Virus record (IMG/VR): IMGVR_UViG_3300025096_000063
Coordinates: 1 to 35,701 of that record
Length of the DNA: 35,701 nt
Direction: 5' to 3' (one strand)
Origin: a virus
Part shown: positions 8,702 through 29,805 of the stretch, piece by piece
Layout of the letters: every line of letters starts with the position of its first letter
Numbering within the stretch: the stretch's first letter is position 1
Made by a program: the position numbers and the translations under genes
Notes under the pieces: model-generated
Database searches by the model: none
What the model was told of the DNA's origin: nothing
Seen by the model: only the letters and a program-made list of their open reading frames with translations

Positions 8702-8741
8702 TATGTTCATGGATTGTTTCCCCATTAAAAAGCTCTAATCA

Positions 8742-8748
8742 ATAAATA
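8742..8748 (+). promoter_or_regulatory. Candidate late promoter box ATAAATA for gene 18
   Basis: ATAAATA within CAATAAATAAG lies 41 bp before the gene 18 start and matches seven of eight positions of the T4 late consensus TATAAATA. It is in a real 87-bp intergenic gap, so it is not constrained by coding. The ribosome binding site AAGGGGA follows at about 8776. Confidence 0.6.
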
Positions 8749-8788
8749 AGTTTAGGGAAAAAGATGAAACTCTTCAAGGGGAACTAAC

Positions 8789-11206
8789 ATGGCGTTAAAT
8801 TTAGTATCACCAGGCGTTAGAGTCAAGGAAATTGATTTAACCATCGGCAGAATTGACGATATCAACGATCAGGTTGGTGCAATTGCAGGTCCTTTTGAAA
8901 AAGGTCCAGTTAATGTACCGATTTTAATTGAGACAGAAGCCGAATTACTCAATACGTTTGGGTCACCAAAATCTTCTGATGCTCAGTACGAATATTGGAT
9001 GACTGCATCCGCTTTCTTGTCTTATGGTGGAGTACTTAGAGTAATTAGGACAAGTGGAGATAAACTCTCCAATGCTAACACACCTGTTGGTGCTGCAGTT
9101 ACTAACTTGTCTATCGAGTCTGCTGAAGACTATTTCAATAATCACACTATCGATCCAAACTGGAAGTATTCTGCAAGGAACCCTGGCTCATGGGCAAACG
9201 ATCTTAAAGTTTGCATCGTTGATGGTAAGGCAGATCAAAGACTTGCAATTGGTACTGATGGACTTGCAGTTGGATATGCTGTTACCGCTGGTTTCTCTAC
9301 TAGTGTTGCTCTAACAGATGGTACTGTTGGTGTTCAAACTGGATACCTTAAGGGACAGATCACTGCAATCAACAAAGGATCCTTTGACGTTAAGATCATT
9401 AGTAAGTTTGACAGTTCAACTAGTGTCTGGTCTGAAACCGACTATGAAGAAGGTTCATCTACTAATGCTTTCCAAGGATATGAACAGGGAATCTTCGATT
9501 GGCAGAACACTAATCAAGTTCCTAACGTTAACTATCCTAACCGTATAAGAGTTTTCAATGCTTCTGGTATTGAACAAAGAATTGAGAGAACTAGATTCCA
9601 AGCAACAATCGGAATTGGTTCTACTGGTATTGAATTTGGTTCTGATTTAGACACCTATAAGGCACATATCGGAGACCAGATCAAGTCCGTTAATGGAACA
9701 TACACTGGTAATATAGTTGGTTATTCAACTATCTTCAACCGTGTCATTATGGACACTTCTGCTACAGTGTCGTTTGCAAATACAGACTTCGTTGTTAGTT
9801 CTGGTGTTGGTAGTGGTATTAACTTACGTGTAGGTAATACTGCAACTGATTGGTATCAACAACAGACACTCGGACTTTCTAATAGTAATTTCTATTGGAA
9901 GAACGTTGCTCCTGCTCCTAGCACATCCGCATATGCTAAGGAAAGGAATTCAAGATTTGATGAAGTTCATGTTGTAGTTGTTGATGATACTGGTTCTGTA
10001 ACAGGTACAGCTGGTAACATCCTAGAGAAATGGACTGGATTATCTAAGGCACTTGATGCTAAGATCTCTCCAAGTACAGCTACTTACTACAAGGATTACA
10101 TCGCTAACTACTCTGATTACGTTTTCGCTGGTGCAGTTGAAACTGGAATCGGACTTAAGTACTCCACTAATAGTGGATATACTGTTGATGCAACAGGTAC
10201 TTGGGGTCAGAACGCTCAGAACGTTACCTTCAATGGTGTAGGTGCTGTTGCAAATACACTCGCAAGTGGTAATGACTATGGATCTGTTAATTCATACAAT
10301 ACTACTCTCGGAGACGTTGTTAGTTCCTATACAGTTTTAGAAAATCCTGCTGAATACGATGTTAATTATCTAATTCAGGGACCATCTGGCGGATCTTCAA
10401 TCTATGAAGCTCAGGCCAAGGCTAATAAACTAATTCAGATTGCAAATACCCGTAAGGATTGCATCGCTTGTATTTCACCATACAGATCTGGAGTAGTTGG
10501 TTTAACTAACTCTGACACTCAGACAAACAACGTAGTTACTTTCTACGATAGTTTGTCGTCTAGTTCCTATGCAGTATTTGACTCTGGTTACAAATACACC
10601 TTCGATAGGTTTAATAACACATTCCGTTATATTCCTTTGAATGGTGATATTGCTGGAGTTATGGCAAGAACATCTATTAATTCTTATCCTTGGTTCTCAC
10701 CTGCTGGTTCTACAAGGGGTACAATTAATAATGCAATCAAACTTGCATATAATCCTTCTCAGGCACAAAGAGATCTTCTCTATCCTAAGAGAATTAACCC
10801 TGTTGTCTTCTCTGCTGGTGCAGGAATGATTCTCTTCGGAGACAAGACAGGACTTAAGGATGCCTCTGCTTTCGATAGAATCAACGTTCGTCGTTTGTTC
10901 TTAACAATCGAAAGTACAATTGAAAGGGCTGCAAAAGCTCAACTATTTGAATTCAACGATACTCTTACAAGAACAAACTTCTTGAATATTGTTGAACCAT
11001 ACCTTCGTGATGTTAAGGCTAAGAGAGGTATTACAGACTTTGTGGTTGTCTGTGACGAGTCTAATAACACACCTGATGTTATTGACGCTAACCAGTTTAA
11101 GGCAGACATATTTGTGAAGCCTGCCAGATCGATCAACTTTATCGGTCTAACCTTTGTTGCAACTAGGACTGGCATCAGTTTTGATGAAGTCATAGGTACT
11201 GCTTGA
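8789..11206 (+). CDS. 18: Contractile tail sheath protein gp18
   Basis: This is 805 residues, longer than T4 gp18 (659). The N-terminus LVSPGVRVKEIDLT is the classic sheath opening. FGSPKSSDAQYEYWMTASAFLSYGG is the conserved region following it. The C-terminal core has GLKDASAFDRINVRRLFLTI, then the helix AAKAQLFEFNDTLTRTNFLN and a C-terminal strand-helix module ending VGTA, all typical of T4-type sheaths. The middle (roughly residues 130-450) holds the variable protruding domains and accounts for the extra length. Subunits stack around the tube and contract on adsorption. The gene has its own late box and good ribosome binding site, as expected for a protein made in many copies. Confidence 0.95.
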   Translation: MALNLVSPGVRVKEIDLTIGRIDDINDQVGAIAGPFEKGPVNVPILIETEAELLNTFGSPKSSDAQYEYWMTASAFLSYGGVLRVIRTSGDKLSNANTPVGAAVTNLSIESAEDYFNNHTIDPNWKYSARNPGSWANDLKVCIVDGKADQRLAIGTDGLAVGYAVTAGFSTSVALTDGTVGVQTGYLKGQITAINKGSFDVKIISKFDSSTSVWSETDYEEGSSTNAFQGYEQGIFDWQNTNQVPNVNYPNRIRVFNASGIEQRIERTRFQATIGIGSTGIEFGSDLDTYKAHIGDQIKSVNGTYTGNIVGYSTIFNRVIMDTSATVSFANTDFVVSSGVGSGINLRVGNTATDWYQQQTLGLSNSNFYWKNVAPAPSTSAYAKERNSRFDEVHVVVVDDTGSVTGTAGNILEKWTGLSKALDAKISPSTATYYKDYIANYSDYVFAGAVETGIGLKYSTNSGYTVDATGTWGQNAQNVTFNGVGAVANTLASGNDYGSVNSYNTTLGDVVSSYTVLENPAEYDVNYLIQGPSGGSSIYEAQAKANKLIQIANTRKDCIACISPYRSGVVGLTNSDTQTNNVVTFYDSLSSSSYAVFDSGYKYTFDRFNNTFRYIPLNGDIAGVMARTSINSYPWFSPAGSTRGTINNAIKLAYNPSQAQRDLLYPKRINPVVFSAGAGMILFGDKTGLKDASAFDRINVRRLFLTIESTIERAAKAQLFEFNDTLTRTNFLNIVEPYLRDVKAKRGITDFVVVCDESNNTPDVIDANQFKADIFVKPARSINFIGLTFVATRTGISFDEVIGTA

Positions 11207-11929: not shown

Positions 11930-11932
11930 ATA
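11926..11932 (+). promoter_or_regulatory. Candidate late promoter box ATAAATA at the end of gene 19
   Basis: ATAAATA overlaps the gene 19 stop codon, 70 bp upstream of gene 20. A second copy follows at 11965-11971. The overlap with the left arm of a hairpin (11928-11957) makes this copy ambiguous: it may be a promoter, part of a terminator, or both. Confidence 0.35.
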
Positions 11933-11957
11933 TCTCTATTTGATAAGAGGGATATTT
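11928..11957 (+). terminator. Hairpin after gene 19, possible weak terminator
   Basis: AAATATCTCT (11928-11937) pairs with AGGGATATTT (11948-11957), giving a 10-bp stem with one G-T wobble and a 10-base loop, starting in the gene 19 stop codon. The stem is AT-rich and followed by only a short T run (TTTTGA), so termination would be partial. Such a hairpin could also protect the very abundant gene 18-19 mRNA from 3' decay. Confidence 0.45.
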
Positions 11958-11964
11958 TGATGTA

Positions 11965-11971
11965 ATAAATA
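11965..11971 (+). promoter_or_regulatory. Candidate late promoter box ATAAATA for gene 20
   Basis: TAATAAATA ends 31 bp before the gene 20 start, in a 72-bp gap. The leader it would produce begins with the perfect 7-bp hairpin at 11971-11989. Spacing resembles that of the other late boxes in this block. Confidence 0.55.
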
Positions 11972-11989
11972 ACTGGGAAGAGCCCAGTT
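11971..11989 (+). promoter_or_regulatory. Perfect 7-bp hairpin in the gene 20 leader
   Basis: AACTGGG (11971-11977), loop AAGAG, CCCAGTT (11983-11989) form a GC-containing perfect stem 12 bases before the gene 20 start. No T tract follows, so it is not an intrinsic terminator. It lies where the ribosome binds and no better Shine-Dalgarno is visible, so it may limit or tune portal translation; this is inference. Confidence 0.45.
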
Positions 11990-12001
11990 AGTGATAGTTA
12001 A

Positions 12002-13687
12002 ATGGCTAAATTATTTGGTTTTAAAATTCAGAAGGACGATGAGGCTGTAAAGTCCGTCGTTTCTCCTGTTCCAAAATCCGAGGAGGATTCCTCGGATTAT
12101 TATGTTTCTAGTGGTTTTTACGGACAGTACGTAGACATCGATGGTGTCTATAAATCTGAATTTGATTTAATCAAAAGATATAGAGAGATGGCATTACATC
12201 CCGAAGTGGATAATGCTATCGAAGATATTATAAACGAAGCGATTGTTTCCGATCAGAATGATTCTCCTGTTCAGATTGACTTGGAGAATACTCCAGGCTC
12301 TGAGAAGTTAAAGGAATTAATCAGACAAGAATTTAAATCCGTTAAAGAACTCATGAACTTCGATAAGAAGTGTCATGAGATTTTGCGTAATTGGTATATT
12401 GATGGCAGAATCTTTTATCACAAAGTCATTGATATAAAAAAGCCAGAACAAGGAATACAAGAAGTTAGAAATATAGATCCACTTAAAATAAAATTTATTA
12501 GAAAGTTGAAAGAGGATAAGACTCTTAATGGCGCTCTACAAAGAGTTAATCAGGATCAAATTCAAAATGTAGATAATCCAGAGATTGAAGAATATTATCT
12601 TTACGATCCAGGCACTAATGCTAATAAAGCTGGAGTAGGTGGTATTGGACAACCATTTAAGAGTTCATTAAAACCAGTAAAACTTGCGCCAGATTCCGTT
12701 ACATTCGCTCATTCTGGTTTAGTAGATAGAAATAAGAATACCATTCTTTCTTATCTAAACAAGTCCATTAAGGCACTTAATCAGTTAAGAATGATTGAGG
12801 ACTCCCTTGTTATCTACAGGTTGAGTCGTGCTCCTGAAAGAAGGATCTTTTATATTGATGTAGGTAATCTTCCAAAGATTAAAGCGGAACAATACCTCAA
12901 AGAGGTTATGAACCGTTATAGAAATAAGTTAGTATATAACGCATCAACTGGTGAGATCAGGGATGACAGAAAGCATATGAGTATGCTGGAAGATTTCTGG
13001 TTACCACGTAGAGAAGGTGGTAGGGGTACTGAGATCACTACTCTTCCAGGCGGACAAAACCTTGGAGAACTTGCTGATATTGAGTACTTCCAAAAGAAAC
13101 TTTATCGTTCATTGGGAGTTCCCGAATCACGTATCGCTGGTTCAGGTGAAGGATTTAATCTTGGAAGGTCTTCTGAGATCTTAAGAGACGAGATTAAGTT
13201 CACCAAGTTTGTTGGTAGAATGAGAAAGAGGTTCTCAAGTGTCTTCCTTGACATGTTGAAGACTAATCTAATTCTTAAGAACATAGTTACCCCAGAGGAC
13301 TGGGAAGTTCTTTCAGATCATATACAGTTTGATTTTGTATATGATAATCATTTTGCAGAACTTAAAGATGTAGAACTTCTTAATGAGAGACTTGGTGTTG
13401 TTGCCGCAGTCGATCCTTATGTTGGTAAGTACTACTCAATGGATTATGTAAGAAGACATGTCCTTAAACAAAAGGATGAAGAGATCATTGAGATCGATAA
13501 GCAGATGGATAAGGAAATCAAAGACGGCAAGGTTATGGATCCTATGGAAACTCAACAATTAGGTATGGGTATTCATCCAGAACAGATGCCTGGCGGTATG
13601 CTTAATCCTGCTGATCCTTCAATGGATCCTGCTGCTCAACAGCAACAACAACCACCTGCCCAAATGCCTAAAGGTGGTGAGATATAA
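12002..13687 (+). CDS. 20: Portal vertex protein gp20
   Basis: This is 561 residues, close to T4 gp20 (524). Diagnostic cyanophage gp20 segments are present: DLIKRYREMALHPEVDNAIEDI-type wing sequence, then a region around VIYRLSRAPERRIFYIDVGNLP, then DFWLPRREGGRGTEITTLPG, and finally FQKKLYRSLGVPESRI. These regions include the classic targets used for cyanomyovirus diversity surveys. Twelve copies form the portal through which gp17 pumps DNA. The C-terminus is a low-complexity Met/Pro/Gln tail with QQQQQ near residue 548. A late box and hairpin precede it, and a perfect TATAAATA overlaps its stop. Confidence 0.96.
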   Translation: MAKLFGFKIQKDDEAVKSVVSPVPKSEEDSSDYYVSSGFYGQYVDIDGVYKSEFDLIKRYREMALHPEVDNAIEDIINEAIVSDQNDSPVQIDLENTPGSEKLKELIRQEFKSVKELMNFDKKCHEILRNWYIDGRIFYHKVIDIKKPEQGIQEVRNIDPLKIKFIRKLKEDKTLNGALQRVNQDQIQNVDNPEIEEYYLYDPGTNANKAGVGGIGQPFKSSLKPVKLAPDSVTFAHSGLVDRNKNTILSYLNKSIKALNQLRMIEDSLVIYRLSRAPERRIFYIDVGNLPKIKAEQYLKEVMNRYRNKLVYNASTGEIRDDRKHMSMLEDFWLPRREGGRGTEITTLPGGQNLGELADIEYFQKKLYRSLGVPESRIAGSGEGFNLGRSSEILRDEIKFTKFVGRMRKRFSSVFLDMLKTNLILKNIVTPEDWEVLSDHIQFDFVYDNHFAELKDVELLNERLGVVAAVDPYVGKYYSMDYVRRHVLKQKDEEIIEIDKQMDKEIKDGKVMDPMETQQLGMGIHPEQMPGGMLNPADPSMDPAAQQQQQPPAQMPKGGEI

Positions 13688-13690
13688 ATA
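13683..13690 (+). promoter_or_regulatory. Late promoter TATAAATA for the 67-like/21 unit
   Basis: TATAAATA is a perfect match to the T4 late -10 consensus. It overlaps the stop codon of gene 20 and lies 30 bp before the 67-like ORF and 351 bp before gene 21. It is the best late-promoter match found in the window and would let the prohead core and protease genes be transcribed separately from the portal. Confidence 0.65.
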
Positions 13691-13720
13691 TCTTTAGTCC
13701 AATCTTAAATTATTACTGTT

Positions 13721-14767: not shown

Positions 14768-14771
14768 TTTA

Positions 14772-14782
14772 ATAAATAAATA
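14772..14782 (+). promoter_or_regulatory. Overlapping pair of late promoter boxes ATAAATA for gene 22
   Basis: AATAAATAAATAC contains two overlapping ATAAATA copies (14772-14778 and 14776-14782) in the 55-bp gap between genes 21 and 22. The ribosome binding site AGGAG at 14811-14815 is seven bases before the gene 22 start. The tandem spelling leaves the exact start of transcription open. Confidence 0.55.
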
Positions 14783-14822
14783 CAGATTACGATATCTACT
14801 AAAGCCTTAGAGGAGAGTTCAA

Positions 14823-20874: not shown

Positions 20875-20898
20875 CATCCCTTTGAACCCTGGCAGAGT

Positions 20899-20913
20899 TA
20901 TCATACTGATAAA
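20899..20913 (+). repeat. Short inverted repeat upstream of gene 55
   Basis: TTATCA, loop TAC, TGATAA form a perfect 6-bp inverted repeat in the 105-bp gap between the Sm-like gene and gene 55, upstream of a TATAAT box. It is too AT-rich and lacks a T run for termination; it could be an operator or mRNA hairpin. Confidence 0.35.
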
Positions 20914-20933
20914 CGGGGGACTTGTCAAGTAGG

Positions 20934-20939
20934 TATAAT
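20934..20939 (+). promoter_or_regulatory. Candidate sigma70-type -10 box upstream of gene 55
   Basis: TATAAT lies 41 bp before the gene 55 start in the longest gap of the recombination region. No convincing -35 hexamer is found 16-18 bp upstream. An early or middle promoter for the late sigma factor is biologically sensible, but the evidence is one hexamer. Confidence 0.35.
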
Positions 20940-20979
20940 TATGGTAGTATATAAACAAAGTTAGATTGTCAAAGATGAT

Positions 20980-21462
20980 ATGCCCGCAGCAAAAGGCCGA
21001 AAGAGATCAGAACACTATGTAAATAACAAGGAATTTCTGTACGCTATCGTACAGTATAAAACGGATGTAAAGGAAGCTTTAGAAAAAGGTGATCCTAAAC
21101 CACGTATTAGTAATTACCTTGGTGAGTGTTTCTTAAAGATTGCGACACACCTGTCGTACAAACCAAACTTCGTGAATTACATGTTTAGGGAGGATATGAT
21201 TTGTGATGGAATTGAAAATTGCGTTCAATACATACATAACTTCAATCCAGAGAAATCTACAAACCCTTTTGCTTACTTCACCCAGATTATACACTACGCA
21301 TTTCTTCGGAGGATCCAGAAAGAGAAGAAACAAATGGAGATCCGTACAAAAATCATTGAGAAGTCGGGGTACGATGAAGTATTCACTGTTGATGATGATT
21401 ACGGCAGTCCTTCTGACTACAATTCTATAAAGGAAGCAGTTCAAACGAAGATGTATCAATGA
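20980..21462 (+). CDS. 55: Late-transcription sigma factor gp55
   Basis: This is 160 residues; T4 gp55 is 185. The conserved sigma-region-2-like core is seen in LGECFLKIATHLSYKPNFVN and MICDGIENCVQYIHNFNPEK, followed by NPFAYFTQIIHYAFLRRIQKEKKQ. This last stretch is the aromatic helix that melts the -10 region and binds RNA polymerase. gp55 replaces the host sigma factor and, helped by sliding clamp gp45, directs transcription from TATAAATA promoters, several of which are seen in this window. It is the first of three ATGA-coupled genes (55, a 55-residue ORF, 47). Confidence 0.93.
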   Translation: MPAAKGRKRSEHYVNNKEFLYAIVQYKTDVKEALEKGDPKPRISNYLGECFLKIATHLSYKPNFVNYMFREDMICDGIENCVQYIHNFNPEKSTNPFAYFTQIIHYAFLRRIQKEKKQMEIRTKIIEKSGYDEVFTVDDDYGSPSDYNSIKEAVQTKMYQ

Positions 21463-22957: not shown

Positions 22958-24638
22958 CTTTCTATCCACAGGTAATATGTGGATTGAGATTGATATTACA
23001 AAATCTACTACAAATTTAATAGTTGGTGCGAATGGTGCTGGAAAGAGTACTATTTTAGATGCATTGTGTTTTGTTTTATTCAACAAACCTTTTAGAAAGA
23101 TATCAAAAGGTCAGTTGGTTAATACAATGAATGAGAAGGAATGTGAAGTACAAGTATCATTTTCTATAAGTTCTAGAGATTATCAGATCGTTAGGGGAAT
23201 AAAGCCAAATTTATTTGAGATCTATATTGATGGAAAGCTTCAAGACCAGTTTGCTTCTGCTATAGATCAACAGAAACATCTTGAAGATAATATTTTAAAA
23301 CTTAATTTCAAGTCATTTACACAGACGGTCATCTTAGGTTCTGCAACCTTTGTACCATTCATGCAATTAAAATCCTCACATAGGAGAGAGATTGTTGAGG
23401 ATCTTTTAGACATTAAGATATTCTCAGGTATGTCGACTATCCTTAGAGAAAGGATGCGTGGCATAAATGAAACAATAAGGGAACTCTCTGTTAAGAAAGA
23501 TATTGCAGAAGAGAAGATCCAGATGCAAAAGAGTTTTATTGCGGATCTTGATAGAAAGAGTAAAGATACTATTAAGAATAGAGAGGGAAGGTTAGATGGC
23601 CTTCATAAGGATATTAAAGAGTTGTTAAAAGAGAATGAGGATTATCTTAGTAAGTCCAAGTCTCATCAAGAAGAGTTACAGACTTTATCTTCTTCAAAGA
23701 CTGCTCTTAAAAAGATGAATACAATCCAGGCTAAACTGGATCAACGGATACAAACTATAACATCAGAACATAAATTTTTTAATGATAATACGGTTTGTCC
23801 TACATGCGAACAGGATATCCAAGAGGACTTTAGGCTAAATAGGGTGGGTGAAATCGAGGAGAAGGTAAAGGAGATTAACTCCGCTTACAAGGATCTTCAA
23901 AAGTCTATAACCAAAGAACAAGAAAAGAACCAAAGGTTTATAGATGTCTCTCAGCAGGTCACACAATTAACGAATGACGTTTCAACAAACAATTTTAAAG
24001 TATCTGAATATCAACGACAAATCAGAGAATTTGAACAAGAAGTTCAAGACATTACCGATCAGATTGCAGACAGAGATACTGAAAGATCTACCCTTGAGAA
24101 ACTGCAAACAGACCTGAAGGAAGCAGAAAGTAATAAGTCCATACAAACAGAAGACATGTCTTACTTGGAGTTTGCAATCTCTTTGATGAGAGATGGTGGG
24201 GTCAAGTCTAAAATTATTAAGAGATATCTTCCTATAATGAATAAGCAGATAAATCATTATCTGCAATTGATGGATTTCTATATTAATTTTACTCTTGATG
24301 GTGAGTTTAATGAAATAATAAAGTCACCTATCCATGAGAAATTCAGTTACGAGTCCTTCTCTGAAGGTGAAAAAATGCGAATTGATCTTGCTCTTCTCTT
24401 TACTTGGAGAGATATTGCTAAGATGAAAAATTCTTCTTCCACCAACCTATTGATCCTTGATGAGATCTTTGATAGTTCATTGGACAATGGTGGTACAGAC
24501 GAGTTTGTAAAGATAATTAGATATGTAATTAAGGATGCTCACATCTTTTTAATTACACACAAGTCGGAGGATTTGAACGATAGGTTTGATAACCTTATTA
24601 CTTTTGAGAAACTCAATGGGTTTAGTAAGATGGTATAG
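22926..24638 (+). CDS. 46: Recombination nuclease subunit gp46 (SbcC/Rad50 type)
   Basis: This is 570 residues; T4 gp46 is 560. The N-terminal ATPase half begins ITFKTIRWRNFLSTGN with Walker A GANGAGKST (34-42). Q-loop region FTQTVILGSATFVPFMQLKS follows. Two long coiled-coil arms (about 170-280 and 310-420) flank a zinc hook C291-P-T-C294. The C-terminal half has the ABC signature SFSEGEKMRIDLALLF, Walker B LLILDEIFDSSLD and an ITHK switch His. It dimerises through the zinc hook and works with gp47 in end resection. The start codon lies inside the preceding DUF3110 gene, which gives 32 bp of true two-frame coding. Confidence 0.95.
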   Translation: MITFKTIRWRNFLSTGNMWIEIDITKSTTNLIVGANGAGKSTILDALCFVLFNKPFRKISKGQLVNTMNEKECEVQVSFSISSRDYQIVRGIKPNLFEIYIDGKLQDQFASAIDQQKHLEDNILKLNFKSFTQTVILGSATFVPFMQLKSSHRREIVEDLLDIKIFSGMSTILRERMRGINETIRELSVKKDIAEEKIQMQKSFIADLDRKSKDTIKNREGRLDGLHKDIKELLKENEDYLSKSKSHQEELQTLSSSKTALKKMNTIQAKLDQRIQTITSEHKFFNDNTVCPTCEQDIQEDFRLNRVGEIEEKVKEINSAYKDLQKSITKEQEKNQRFIDVSQQVTQLTNDVSTNNFKVSEYQRQIREFEQEVQDITDQIADRDTERSTLEKLQTDLKEAESNKSIQTEDMSYLEFAISLMRDGGVKSKIIKRYLPIMNKQINHYLQLMDFYINFTLDGEFNEIIKSPIHEKFSYESFSEGEKMRIDLALLFTWRDIAKMKNSSSTNLLILDEIFDSSLDNGGTDEFVKIIRYVIKDAHIFLITHKSEDLNDRFDNLITFEKLNGFSKMV

Positions 24639-24659
24639 ACAGTTGTAGAAGCTGCACAC

Positions 24660-24704
24660 CATTGTCCCATTACCCTCTAGATGCTGTTATTATAAGTGCA
24701 TACA
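24660..24704 (+). promoter_or_regulatory. Promoter-like element before the metallopeptidase-vWA gene
   Basis: CATTGTCCC (24660-24668) is followed after 22 bases by TATAAG (24691-24696) and GCATACA (24698-24704), 10 bp before the start at 24715. The same parts with the same 28-bp offset between TGTCCC and TATAA occur before the downstream AAA+ gene at 26963-27006. The repetition in two otherwise unrelated gaps is the main support. Confidence 0.5.
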
Positions 24705-24714
24705 AGAGGACAAG

Positions 24715-26943
24715 ATGTTTTACGGATTTAGATCAAGCAGACCAAAAGTTAAGTCTTCCGTGAATTATGAGGTCAAAGGACAACTAGCTAAATTGCTTGC
24801 TACCGAAGACATCATAATCGAGAATCGCAAGGTCCCCACGGCTTCATTTGATGTGGTTAGAAGGATTCTTACCCTCCCACTATGGGAGAAGGCTTCTGAG
24901 GTCGTATATGACCTTTTGGTAGGACATGAAGTTGGCCATGCATTATATACTCCTGATGAAAATTGGAAACTAAAGTATCCAAAAATCCCAATGTCCTTTG
25001 TTAATATTCTTGAGGACGTTAGGATTGAGAAGTTGATGAAACGTAAGTATCCTGGCCTTATAAAGACATTTCGTAAAGGGTATTCTCAACTAAGTGATAT
25101 GGACTTCTTTGAGATTGAAGAAGTTGATCTTGATACCTTGAGTCTTCCTGATCGGATTAACTTATACTATAAGGTTGGTTCTTTTGTTAAGATTCCATTC
25201 ACTGTTGGTGAGTCTATCTTTCTCAGGAGGGCATCAGAGACTAATAATTTCCAAGAGGTTATAGATCTTGCAAAGGAATTAACAGAATTCTATACAGATG
25301 AAGAAGAAAATAAAATTAAGACACCAGTACCAGTACAAGATTCTGCACAGGATCGTCCTGATACAGAATTAGAAAGACCAGATATAGGTCCAGATACTAC
25401 TGAGTATGAAGAAACAGATCAGGAAGAAGAAGGTCAGTCAAAAACTGAAAGTAAGAACGAGTCTGATGATGTATCTGAATTTCCAAGTCCAGTTCCTAGT
25501 ATGGGTGATACTGGTGGGGATCTAGAGACTGTTACAGATTCAACTCTCCAAGATAATATTAATAAACTCACAGACGTATCTGATAGTAATGAAGAACCAG
25601 TTTATGTTGAATGTCCTAAGTTAAACCTTGACACTTTAATTACATCAGGTGAGGAAATTTATGAGTGTCTTGATGATTGGTATGCTTTAACTAAGAAGAA
25701 TCTTCTAGAACATAATATAGATCCCTTTGTGACTGTGGATAGTGACTATGTTAAGTTCAAAAAGACTGCTCAAAAGGAAGTTAATTACTTGGTTAAAGAG
25801 TTTGAATGTAGAAAATCTGCAAGTGCTTATGCTCGTGCTGCTACTTCTAGGACTGGAGTTTTGGACACAAGTAAGTTACAGACTTACAAATTCAATGAAG
25901 ATCTATTCAAGAAAGTAACAACTCTTCCAGATGGTAAGAATCATGGATTGATTTTCATTCTTGATTGGTCTGGATCTATGTCTGAGGTTCTTCTTGATAC
26001 AGTAAAACAACTTTACAATTTAGTTTGGTTCTGTAGGAAGGTTCAAATTCCTTATGAAGTATATGCTTTCACTAATGAATGGAAAACAAGAGATAAATCA
26101 GAAGAAATAAAAACTCTTCCAGAACATATGGAAAGGAAGGAAAGAGTTCTTCAAGTTGATTCAGAATTTACTCTTCTCAATGTATTGAGTAGTAGGACAA
26201 AGACCACACAACTTGATAATCGGATGAAGAGTTTCTTCAGACTTGTTACTTCATTGGATCGTAAGGGAAGGTCAAATCATATGGATTATTGTTATCAGTA
26301 TCCAGATAGACTTTGTTTGTCTGGTACTCCATTGAACGAGGCTTTAATTTCTCTTAATAGTATTATTCCAGAATTTAGAAAGAGAACTAAGGTTGAGAAA
26401 GTTCAGTGTATTACTCTTACAGATGGTGATGCACATGCATTAAAATATAATGCAATATGTAAGACCAGATATTATGAGGATGATGGTGAAACTTACATGG
26501 GTTACAGGAGTACTATCAATGGAAAAACTTTTATTCGTGATAGGAAGACTGGTAAAACATATTTCTGTAAGACTGAGTACTATGAAATGACTTCTGCTTT
26601 ATTGAATCAACTTAGAGATAGATTCCCCAATACTAATTTCATTGGTATCAGGGTTATGGCTAACCGTGATGCTAGTAATTTCATTCGTAGGCATTCTGAT
26701 TTTGATTATAATAAGGTAGAATCTATAGTTAAAGAATGGAGAAAAAATAAGTCTTTCTCAATTCCAGATGCAGGATACCATGCTTACTTTGGTCTATCTT
26801 CAAGTGCTCTCAATACTGAGACTGAGTTTGATACTGATCTTAATGCTACCAAAGCAGAGATCAAACGTGCCTTTAATAAGAGTCTTAAGGGTAAGAAAAT
26901 GAACAAGAAAGTTCTTGGTGAGTTTATCAGTCTGATCGCTTAG
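24715..26943 (+). CDS. Zinc metallopeptidase-von Willebrand A fusion, CobT/NorD-like partner of a MoxR ATPase
   Basis: This is 742 residues. An N-terminal domain has a zinc-peptidase motif H71-E-V-G-H75 (in LLVGHEVGHALYTP), with a second acidic motif L-E100-D-V-R-I-E105 about 25 residues later as in gluzincin-like and NorD/CobT proteins. Residues about 195-300 form an acidic, Pro/Thr/Ser-rich linker. A C-terminal vWA domain starts near 410 with a complete MIDAS D417-W-S419-G-S421 and later CLSGTPLNEAL and ITLTDGDAHAL. The downstream gene is a MoxR/CobS AAA+ ATPase, the standard partner. Cyanophage relatives are sometimes labelled CobT; the HEXXH site argues against a pure chelatase role. Processing, refolding or metal loading of a target protein is the likely function (inference). 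Confidence 0.82.
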   Translation: MFYGFRSSRPKVKSSVNYEVKGQLAKLLATEDIIIENRKVPTASFDVVRRILTLPLWEKASEVVYDLLVGHEVGHALYTPDENWKLKYPKIPMSFVNILEDVRIEKLMKRKYPGLIKTFRKGYSQLSDMDFFEIEEVDLDTLSLPDRINLYYKVGSFVKIPFTVGESIFLRRASETNNFQEVIDLAKELTEFYTDEEENKIKTPVPVQDSAQDRPDTELERPDIGPDTTEYEETDQEEEGQSKTESKNESDDVSEFPSPVPSMGDTGGDLETVTDSTLQDNINKLTDVSDSNEEPVYVECPKLNLDTLITSGEEIYECLDDWYALTKKNLLEHNIDPFVTVDSDYVKFKKTAQKEVNYLVKEFECRKSASAYARAATSRTGVLDTSKLQTYKFNEDLFKKVTTLPDGKNHGLIFILDWSGSMSEVLLDTVKQLYNLVWFCRKVQIPYEVYAFTNEWKTRDKSEEIKTLPEHMERKERVLQVDSEFTLLNVLSSRTKTTQLDNRMKSFFRLVTSLDRKGRSNHMDYCYQYPDRLCLSGTPLNEALISLNSIIPEFRKRTKVEKVQCITLTDGDAHALKYNAICKTRYYEDDGETYMGYRSTINGKTFIRDRKTGKTYFCKTEYYEMTSALLNQLRDRFPNTNFIGIRVMANRDASNFIRRHSDFDYNKVESIVKEWRKNKSFSIPDAGYHAYFGLSSSALNTETEFDTDLNATKAEIKRAFNKSLKGKKMNKKVLGEFISLIA

Positions 26944-26962
26944 ACCACTTTAAGAAGTGGTA

Positions 26963-27006
26963 CAATGTCCCTGAAAAATGGGACTTTTTCCTTTATAATG
27001 CATACA
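26963..27006 (+). promoter_or_regulatory. Promoter-like element before the MoxR/CobS-like gene
   Basis: CAATGTCCC (26963-26971), then TATAAT (26994-26999) and GCATACA (27000-27006), 16 bp before the start at 27023. TGTCCC to TATAA is 28 bp, identical to the upstream element at 24660. A CTGAAA at 26971-26976 stands exactly 17 bp from the TATAAT and could serve as a -35. The element overlaps a terminator hairpin. Confidence 0.55.
26967..26989 (+). terminator. Intrinsic terminator after the metallopeptidase-vWA gene
   Basis: GTCCC (26967-26971), loop TGAAAAAT, GGGAC (26980-26984), then TTTTT (26985-26989). The stem is short but GC-rich with a T run. A second hairpin, ACCACTT/AAGTGGT at 26944-26961, sits directly after the stop codon. 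The terminator shares bases with the promoter-like element for the next gene, a compact end/start arrangement. Confidence 0.65.
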
Positions 27007-27022
27007 TACAAACAAGATAACA

Positions 27023-29805
<2,783 letters not shown>

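What the first reader, a model, noticed from the sequence alone, without database searches (positions are those of the whole stretch)
24660..27006. Repeated promoter-like element TGTCCC-N22-TATAA with GCATACA
The two gaps before the vWA-metallopeptidase and AAA+ genes share CA[T/A]TGTCCC, TATAA and GCATACA, with an identical 28-bp offset between TGTCCC and TATAA (24663/24691 and 26966/26994). The spacer is too long for a usual sigma70 -35/-10, so TGTCCC could be the site of an activator working like MotA at T4 middle promoters. The genes between have no such copy that I noticed.
Basis: seen in the sequence. Interest (0 to 1): 0.65.

Follow-up and report, generated by a model that had tools for sequence, protein, structure and literature searches.

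The report
Palindromic promoter switch in cyanophages

Summary
TGTCCC-N22-TATAA occurs 0 times in five complete cyanophage genomes (1.06 Mb), and TGTCCC is present in only 10 of 117 orthologous promoters. In gap 2 it is the 5' arm of a terminator hairpin. The shared element lies just upstream: a dyad, TGTGNCASTTNNNNAASTGNCACA (24635-24658 and 26941-26964), each exactly 29 bp before a -10 box (TATTAT 24688, TATAAT 26994). A model trained on other phages scores the two sites 29.4 and 21.8 bits; no other window site exceeds 9.1, and no shuffle of 300 gave two such sites. Palindromes picked without any -10 requirement still show TATAAT-like boxes at 29 bp (53 cases) or 30 bp (25), against about 1-2 at other offsets. 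The palindrome occurs in 14 of 14 T4-like marine cyanophages (98 copies; control 6) and is absent from T4, KVP40, S-TIM5, Ma-LMM01 and P-SSP7. It precedes a block of small ORFs, a helicase, the peptidase and cobS. Best explanation: a sigma70 promoter class switched on by an unidentified dimeric activator bound at about -53. Doron et al. 2016 (not held) may already have reported this element in phage Syn9.

The parts
24635..24658 (+). Operator-like palindrome 1, ATAGACAGTTGTAGAAGCTGCACA; its left arm overlaps the gp46 stop codon
   Evidence: 15.3 bits for the palindrome and 21.8 with its -10, in a model trained on other phages; found independently by motif discovery
24659..24687 (+).
24688..24693 (+). 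-10 box TATTAT of the peptidase promoter (predicted)
   Evidence: exactly 29 bp after palindrome 1, the commonest distance in relatives
24698..24704 (+). GCATACA, predicted start-site/initial transcribed region (TSS near 24700)
   Evidence: position relative to the -10; downstream profile in relatives
24715..26943 (+). CobT-like/vWA peptidase gene (T4-GC 146 in relatives)
   Evidence: synteny and annotation of homologues; no Pfam family at E 0.001
26941..26964 (+). Operator-like palindrome 2, TAGACCACTTTAAGAAGTGGTACA; its left arm overlaps the peptidase stop codon
   Evidence: 19.8 bits for the palindrome and 29.4 with its -10; motif discovery
26967..26989 (+).
   Evidence: same arrangement in 58 of 70 cobS promoters
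26994..26999 (+). -10 box TATAAT of the cobS promoter (predicted)
   Evidence: exactly 29 bp after palindrome 2
27000..27006 (+). GCATACA, predicted start-site/initial transcribed region (TSS near 27006)
   Evidence: position relative to the -10
27023..28141 (+). cobS-like AAA+ gene (MoxR/CbbQ type)
   Evidence: PF07728 AAA_5 E 5.6e-19, CbbQ_C E 2.9e-4; 74% identical to S-SSM7 CobS

Best explanation
Each gap holds one promoter of a class shared by T4-like marine cyanophages. It consists of a 24-bp dyad (TGTGNCASTTNNNNAASTGNCACA), 29 bp (28-30) to a sigma70-type -10 box, and an ATG about 21-28 nt after the -10. The -35 is weak. The dyad, centred near -53.5 from the predicted start, most likely binds a dimeric activator that contacts RNA polymerase directly, for example the alpha C-terminal domain, and turns on an early or early-middle set of genes. 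At cobS, and often at the peptidase gene, the 29-bp spacer also holds an intrinsic terminator for the gene upstream, so terminator and promoter are nested. Shown by sequence: the element, its spacing, its placement, its lineage distribution, and that it behaves as DNA half-sites rather than an RNA stem. Inferred: activation, timing, and that the factor is a protein; the factor is not identified.
For: Unsupervised motif search on 113 non-redundant peptidase/cobS upstream regions returns this dyad first; 98 of 113 have it. Composite promoters at 17 bits or more: S-SSM7 20, S-PM2 27, S-CAM1 19, P-SSM2 30, Syn9 12, window 2, against 0-0.5 in shuffles. Of 129 palindromes taken from viral contigs without any -10 requirement, TATAAT-like boxes lie 29 bp (53) or 30 bp (25) away, against about 1-2 at other offsets. 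Of 100 sites at 18 bits or more, 68 have an ATG-ORF downstream (54 of them at 21-28 nt or close to it), against about 30% at random positions. 14 of 14 T4-like cyanophages carry it, 98 copies against 6 for the reversed pattern. Variable arm positions do not co-vary (7/16: GC 26, GG 24, CC 19, CG 12), so it is not an RNA stem. Near-invariant distance to the -10 is what an RNA-polymerase-contacting activator would require (inference).
Against: No transcription start or binding data were available. A repressor cannot be excluded by sequence. No factor was found: no Ogr_Delta or Crp-type HTH family over cut-off in the cyanophages tested, and block proteins have no DNA-binding regulator family. In some genomes spacing is looser (S-PM2 27-31 bp). 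Timing rests on gene position and recalled literature, not on expression data read here.
Confidence: 0.68

Rival explanations
1. The dyad is a repressor operator: host RNA polymerase reads these promoters at once and a phage or host protein bound upstream shuts them off later.
For: Perfect palindromes are typical of repressor operators as well as activator sites; the -10 boxes are near consensus.
Against: The site ends about 30 bp before the -10, outside the usual -35/-10 blocking zone, and its distance to the -10 is nearly invariant, which a simple repressor does not need; the -35 is weak.
Confidence: 0.18
2. The dyad replaces the -35 element for an unusual holoenzyme, such as a host group 2/3 sigma or a phage-modified RNA polymerase that reads the dyad directly.
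For: Weak -35, strict spacing.
Against: A sigma recognising a 24-bp symmetric site 29 bp from the -10 has no precedent known to me; symmetry points to a dimer.
Confidence: 0.06
3. The repeat acts as RNA: a terminator or processing hairpin between genes, with the -10 boxes incidental.
For: Hairpins fold in gap 2; terminators sit in the spacer at 58 of 70 cobS sites.
Against: The dyad's variable positions do not co-vary; the terminator is a separate element present at only 18 of 98 sites in the five whole genomes; the dyad has fixed distance to the -10.
Confidence: 0.05
4. One reading: TGTCCC is the binding site of a MotA-like activator 28 bp before TATAA.
For: Both copies are exact in the window.
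Against: 0 copies in five complete cyanophage genomes; TGTCCC is in 10 of 117 orthologous promoters; lost from the cobS gap of the close relative L013, which keeps the dyad and TATAAT; not in register with the dyad (4 and 1 nt after it).
Confidence: 0.02

Closest known systems
Novel regulatory element of Syn9 early genes (Doron et al. 2016, ISME J 10:1437; abstract recalled, paper not held)
   Same: Same phage group; reported to control early genes; the present dyad occurs in Syn9 in a block of small ORFs
   Different: I could not read its sequence, so identity is unproven; the palindrome, 29-bp rule, nested terminator and spread over 14 phages are worked out here
P2 late promoters with Ogr/P4 delta site (general knowledge)
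   Same: Dyad centred near -55, weak -35, -10 retained, dimer-type activator contacting RNA polymerase alpha
   Different: Different sequence; no Ogr_Delta protein over cut-off in eight cyanophages; different gene class
T4 middle promoters, MotA box (general knowledge; cyanophage absence of motA/asiA from PMC2984593, PMC5780444)
   Same: Phage-specific upstream site plus sigma70 -10, working on a T4-type gene set
   Different: MotA box is about 9 bp near -30 and not a 24-bp dyad; motA and asiA reported absent
NtcA and CRP-type activator boxes
   Same: Dimer sites at sigma70 promoters in cyanobacteria/phages; NtcA boxes have been predicted in cyanophages (PMC3037559)
   Different: Neither GTA-N8-TAC nor TGTGA-N6-TCACA is present at the two sites; here TGTG and CACA are 16 bp apart

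Membership tests
T4 MotA-dependent middle promoter | MotA box near -30 with 12-13 bp to the -10 | tested here: not met
   Conserved site is a 24-bp dyad ending about 30 bp before the -10
T4 MotA-dependent middle promoter | Phage encodes motA/asiA | not tested
   Reported absent in marine T4-like cyanophages by PMC2984593 and PMC5780444; no search made here
P2 Ogr/delta late promoter | Dyad centred near -55 upstream of a -10 | tested here: met
   Dyad centre -53.5 from the predicted start, calculated from 29 bp to the -10
P2 Ogr/delta late promoter | Ogr_Delta zinc-finger activator (PF04606) | tested here: not met
   No match over cut-off in 8 cyanophages
NtcA-type promoter | GTA-N8-TAC box | tested here: not met
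   Absent from both sites by inspection of the sequence
CRP-type site | TGTGA-N6-TCACA spacing; Crp-type HTH in the phage | tested here: not met
   Half-site spacing differs; no HTH_Crp_2 in 10 cyanophages; host CRP not tested
Syn9 early-gene element (Doron 2016) | Sequence and position at mapped early transcription starts | not testable with these tools
   Paper not held
T4-type late promoter (gp55) | NATAAATA -10 | tested here: not met
   -10 boxes are TATTAT and TATAAT; TATAAATA occurs elsewhere in the window
Host picocyanobacterial regulon operator | Same palindrome repeatedly upstream of host genes | tested here: not met
   135 of 151 genomes of the host family have none at up to 2 mismatches; the rest are mostly single or clustered in a few genomes

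The most novel reading that the evidence does not exclude
T4-like marine cyanophages share a lineage-specific activator system, replacing MotA/AsiA, in which an undescribed DNA-binding protein (phage-encoded, virion-carried or a recruited host factor) reads a 24-bp palindrome fixed 29 bp before the -10 and switches on a takeover regulon of small ORFs, a helicase, the peptidase and cobS.
Probability: 0.3. Interest if true: 0.75.

Novelty: new variant of a known kind. Interest (0 to 1): 0.52.

Why it matters
A 2010 review of T4-like cyanophages states that how early and middle transcription is controlled in this group is unclear (PMC2984593); they lack T4's MotA/AsiA. A precisely defined operator with a spacing rule lets one list the regulon in any cyanophage genome or metagenome contig, correct gene starts, and fish for the binding factor with a DNA bait. 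If it is the element Doron et al. saw in Syn9, this work generalises it to the group; if not, it is a second control element.

Tried and rejected
TGTCCC as the conserved site (0 copies in five genomes). BLAST of the gap against phages: only chance matches. Rfam: no RNA family in the window. Dyad as RNA hairpin: no co-variation. Candidate regulators: Ogr_Delta and Crp-type HTH not found in the phages; conserved block proteins are of unknown function or enzymes such as a helicase and a pyrimidine-dimer glycosylase-like protein. Host operator: sporadic only. Literature: Doron 2016 is not held and the papers held do not give its element. P-HM2 expression classes are in a supplement that could not be opened.

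Full report
The window is a fragment of a T4-like cyanophage: UvsW, a gp55-like sigma, gp46-like SbcC, a peptidase, CobS-like AAA+, a bilin reductase and the gp45 clamp are in order. All the words quoted are present at the quoted places. TGTCCC-N22-TATAA occurs twice where 0.06 is expected, but the motif was picked after the fact.

TGTCCC IS NOT THE ELEMENT. In gap 2, TGTCCC is the 5' arm of a terminator-like hairpin, GTCCC-N8-GGGAC-TTTTT. In L013, a relative whose CobS is 87% identical, the cobS gap has lost TGTCCC but keeps the neighbouring dyad and TATAAT. Five complete cyanophage genomes (1.06 Mb) contain no TGTCCC-N22-TATAA, and TGTCCC occurs in 10 of 117 orthologous promoters, 7 of those as part of the dyad's right arm.

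THE REAL ELEMENT. Lining up the regions upstream of the peptidase and cobS genes from 89 viral contigs and the window shows a conserved dyad. A simple EM motif search over 113 non-redundant upstream regions, started from random sites, returns CCAcTTtaaAAACTGTCACA as its top motif; 98 of 113 have it, and the -10 lies at one of two adjacent distances in 82 of 91. Whole-genome searches show that the full form is a 24-bp palindrome, TGTGNCASTTNNNNAASTGNCACA. In the peptidase and cobS promoters the left arm often overlaps the stop codon of the gene before, as it does at both window sites, which may explain why TGTG decays to TAGA there.

SPACING. A composite model (palindrome, 27-31 bp, -10) trained only on five other genomes finds two sites in the window, 29.4 bits at 26941 and 21.8 bits at 24635, both with exactly 29 bp; the next best score is 9.1. 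In 300 shuffled windows the best single score was 21.9, and none had two sites at 21.8 or more. The model makes the -10 of gap 1 TATTAT at 24688, not TATAA at 24691. Because the model was seeded with spacing 28-30, an independent check is needed: palindromes taken from viral contigs by exact pattern alone show TATAAT-like hexamers at 29 bp (53) or 30 bp (25) on one side or the other, with about 1-2 at most other distances. Of 100 sites at 18 bits or more, 68 have an ATG opening an ORF of at least 35 codons 12-59 nt after the -10, most of them at 21-28 nt; random positions give about 30%. The spacer has only a weak -35 (TTGA-like).

DNA OR RNA. The two variable arm positions (7 and 16) combine almost freely (GC 26, GG 24, CC 19, CG 12), so they are not a base pair. 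This fits two half-sites read by a dimer. A separate terminator hairpin lies inside the spacer in 58 of 70 cobS promoters and 22 of 33 peptidase promoters, against 3-6% in shuffled spacers, but in only 18 of 98 sites in the five whole genomes. At cobS, terminator and promoter are therefore nested within about 60 bp.

WHO HAS IT. At up to 3 mismatches the palindrome occurs in 14 of 14 T4-like marine cyanophages (98 copies, 6 for the reversed-pattern control) and not in T4, KVP40, S-TIM5, Ma-LMM01 or P-SSP7; pelagiphage HTVC008M has 2 against a control of 1. S-TIM5 and P-SSP7 infect the same host genera, which mildly favours a factor of this phage lineage over a general host regulator. In 151 genomes of the host family, 135 have no site at up to 2 mismatches and the rest show no shared gene set apart from one repeated family in four genomes. 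Some other cyanobacteria carry exact sites. Of 80 viral loci with exact palindromes, 71 have ORFs similar to the five cyanophages.

THE REGULON. In S-SSM7, 17 of 20 sites lie in a 13-kb block of small ORFs with a helicase (T4-GC 36), and 2 are the peptidase and cobS promoters. P-SSM2 and Syn9 show the same pattern. Several orthologous groups share it, among them GC 36 helicase, GC 71, GC 81, GC 146 peptidase and GC 150 cobS. Some annotated starts in Syn9 lie upstream of the predicted promoter and may need moving.

MECHANISM. Fixed placement just upstream of a weak -35, with a good -10, is the arrangement of activator-dependent sigma70 promoters; the closest architecture I know is the P2 late promoter with its Ogr/delta dyad near -55. 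I therefore favour an activator. Membership fails for Ogr (no Ogr_Delta protein), MotA (form and position), NtcA and CRP (sequence). The binding factor remains unknown; searches gave no candidate. Repression cannot be excluded.

NOVELTY. From memory, the abstract of Doron et al. 2016 reports a novel regulatory element controlling early genes of Syn9 and host-like promoters for middle genes; the paper is not held. I consider it more likely than not that it is the same element. The 2010 review PMC2984593 calls the control of early and middle transcription in this group unclear. I rate the finding a new variant of a known kind (activator-type phage promoter), with the caveat that it may prove already known.

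Noticed in passing
window 8702-8788, 11930-12001, 13683-13720, 14768-14822: T4-type late-promoter words (AATAAATA/TATAAATA) lie in gaps before structural genes, as expected for gp55-dependent late genes.
   Followed up: no
window 20875-20979: A 105-bp gap before the gp55-like sigma gene (20980-21462) has several sigma70-like -10 words but no palindrome of this class.
   Followed up: partly
window 28077-28724: A ferredoxin-dependent bilin reductase gene overlaps the 3' end of cobS and is probably co-transcribed from the cobS promoter.
   Followed up: partly
L248 and L293 (IMGVR_UViG_3300008113_001711): The exact palindrome recurs with a period near 58 bp in a contig without ORFs similar to the five cyanophages; it looks like an array, not a set of promoters.
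   Followed up: no
L347, L348, L350 (picocyanobacterial genomes G137, G012, G153): Repeated host copies TGTGYCAGTTTGATTAGTGGCACA, nearly the same core as S-SSM7 47374; in L347 and L348 they flank an ORF that looks like a PIN-type protein; a mobile or phage-related element is possible.
   Followed up: partly
L156 site 3805, L194 site 3295: In two Nostocales genomes an exact palindrome lies 18 bp from the end of a purH-like ORF, on its downstream side.
   Followed up: no
window 9406-9427, minus strand: A dyad-like sequence GACACTAGTTGAACTGTCAAAC inside a structural gene scores well but has no -10 at the right distance; probably chance.
   Followed up: partly
P-SSM2 58535, S-RIM8 38852 (W11), S-SCSM1 226388 (W12), window 24649-24658: A variant right half-site AASCTGCACA (TG shifted by one base) recurs in several phages and is the form found in gap 1.
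   Followed up: partly
Syn9 gp61, gp73, gp183 (44804, 48608, 148771): Annotated start codons lie upstream of, or on top of, the predicted promoter; an ATG about 25 nt after the -10 is the likelier start.
   Followed up: partly
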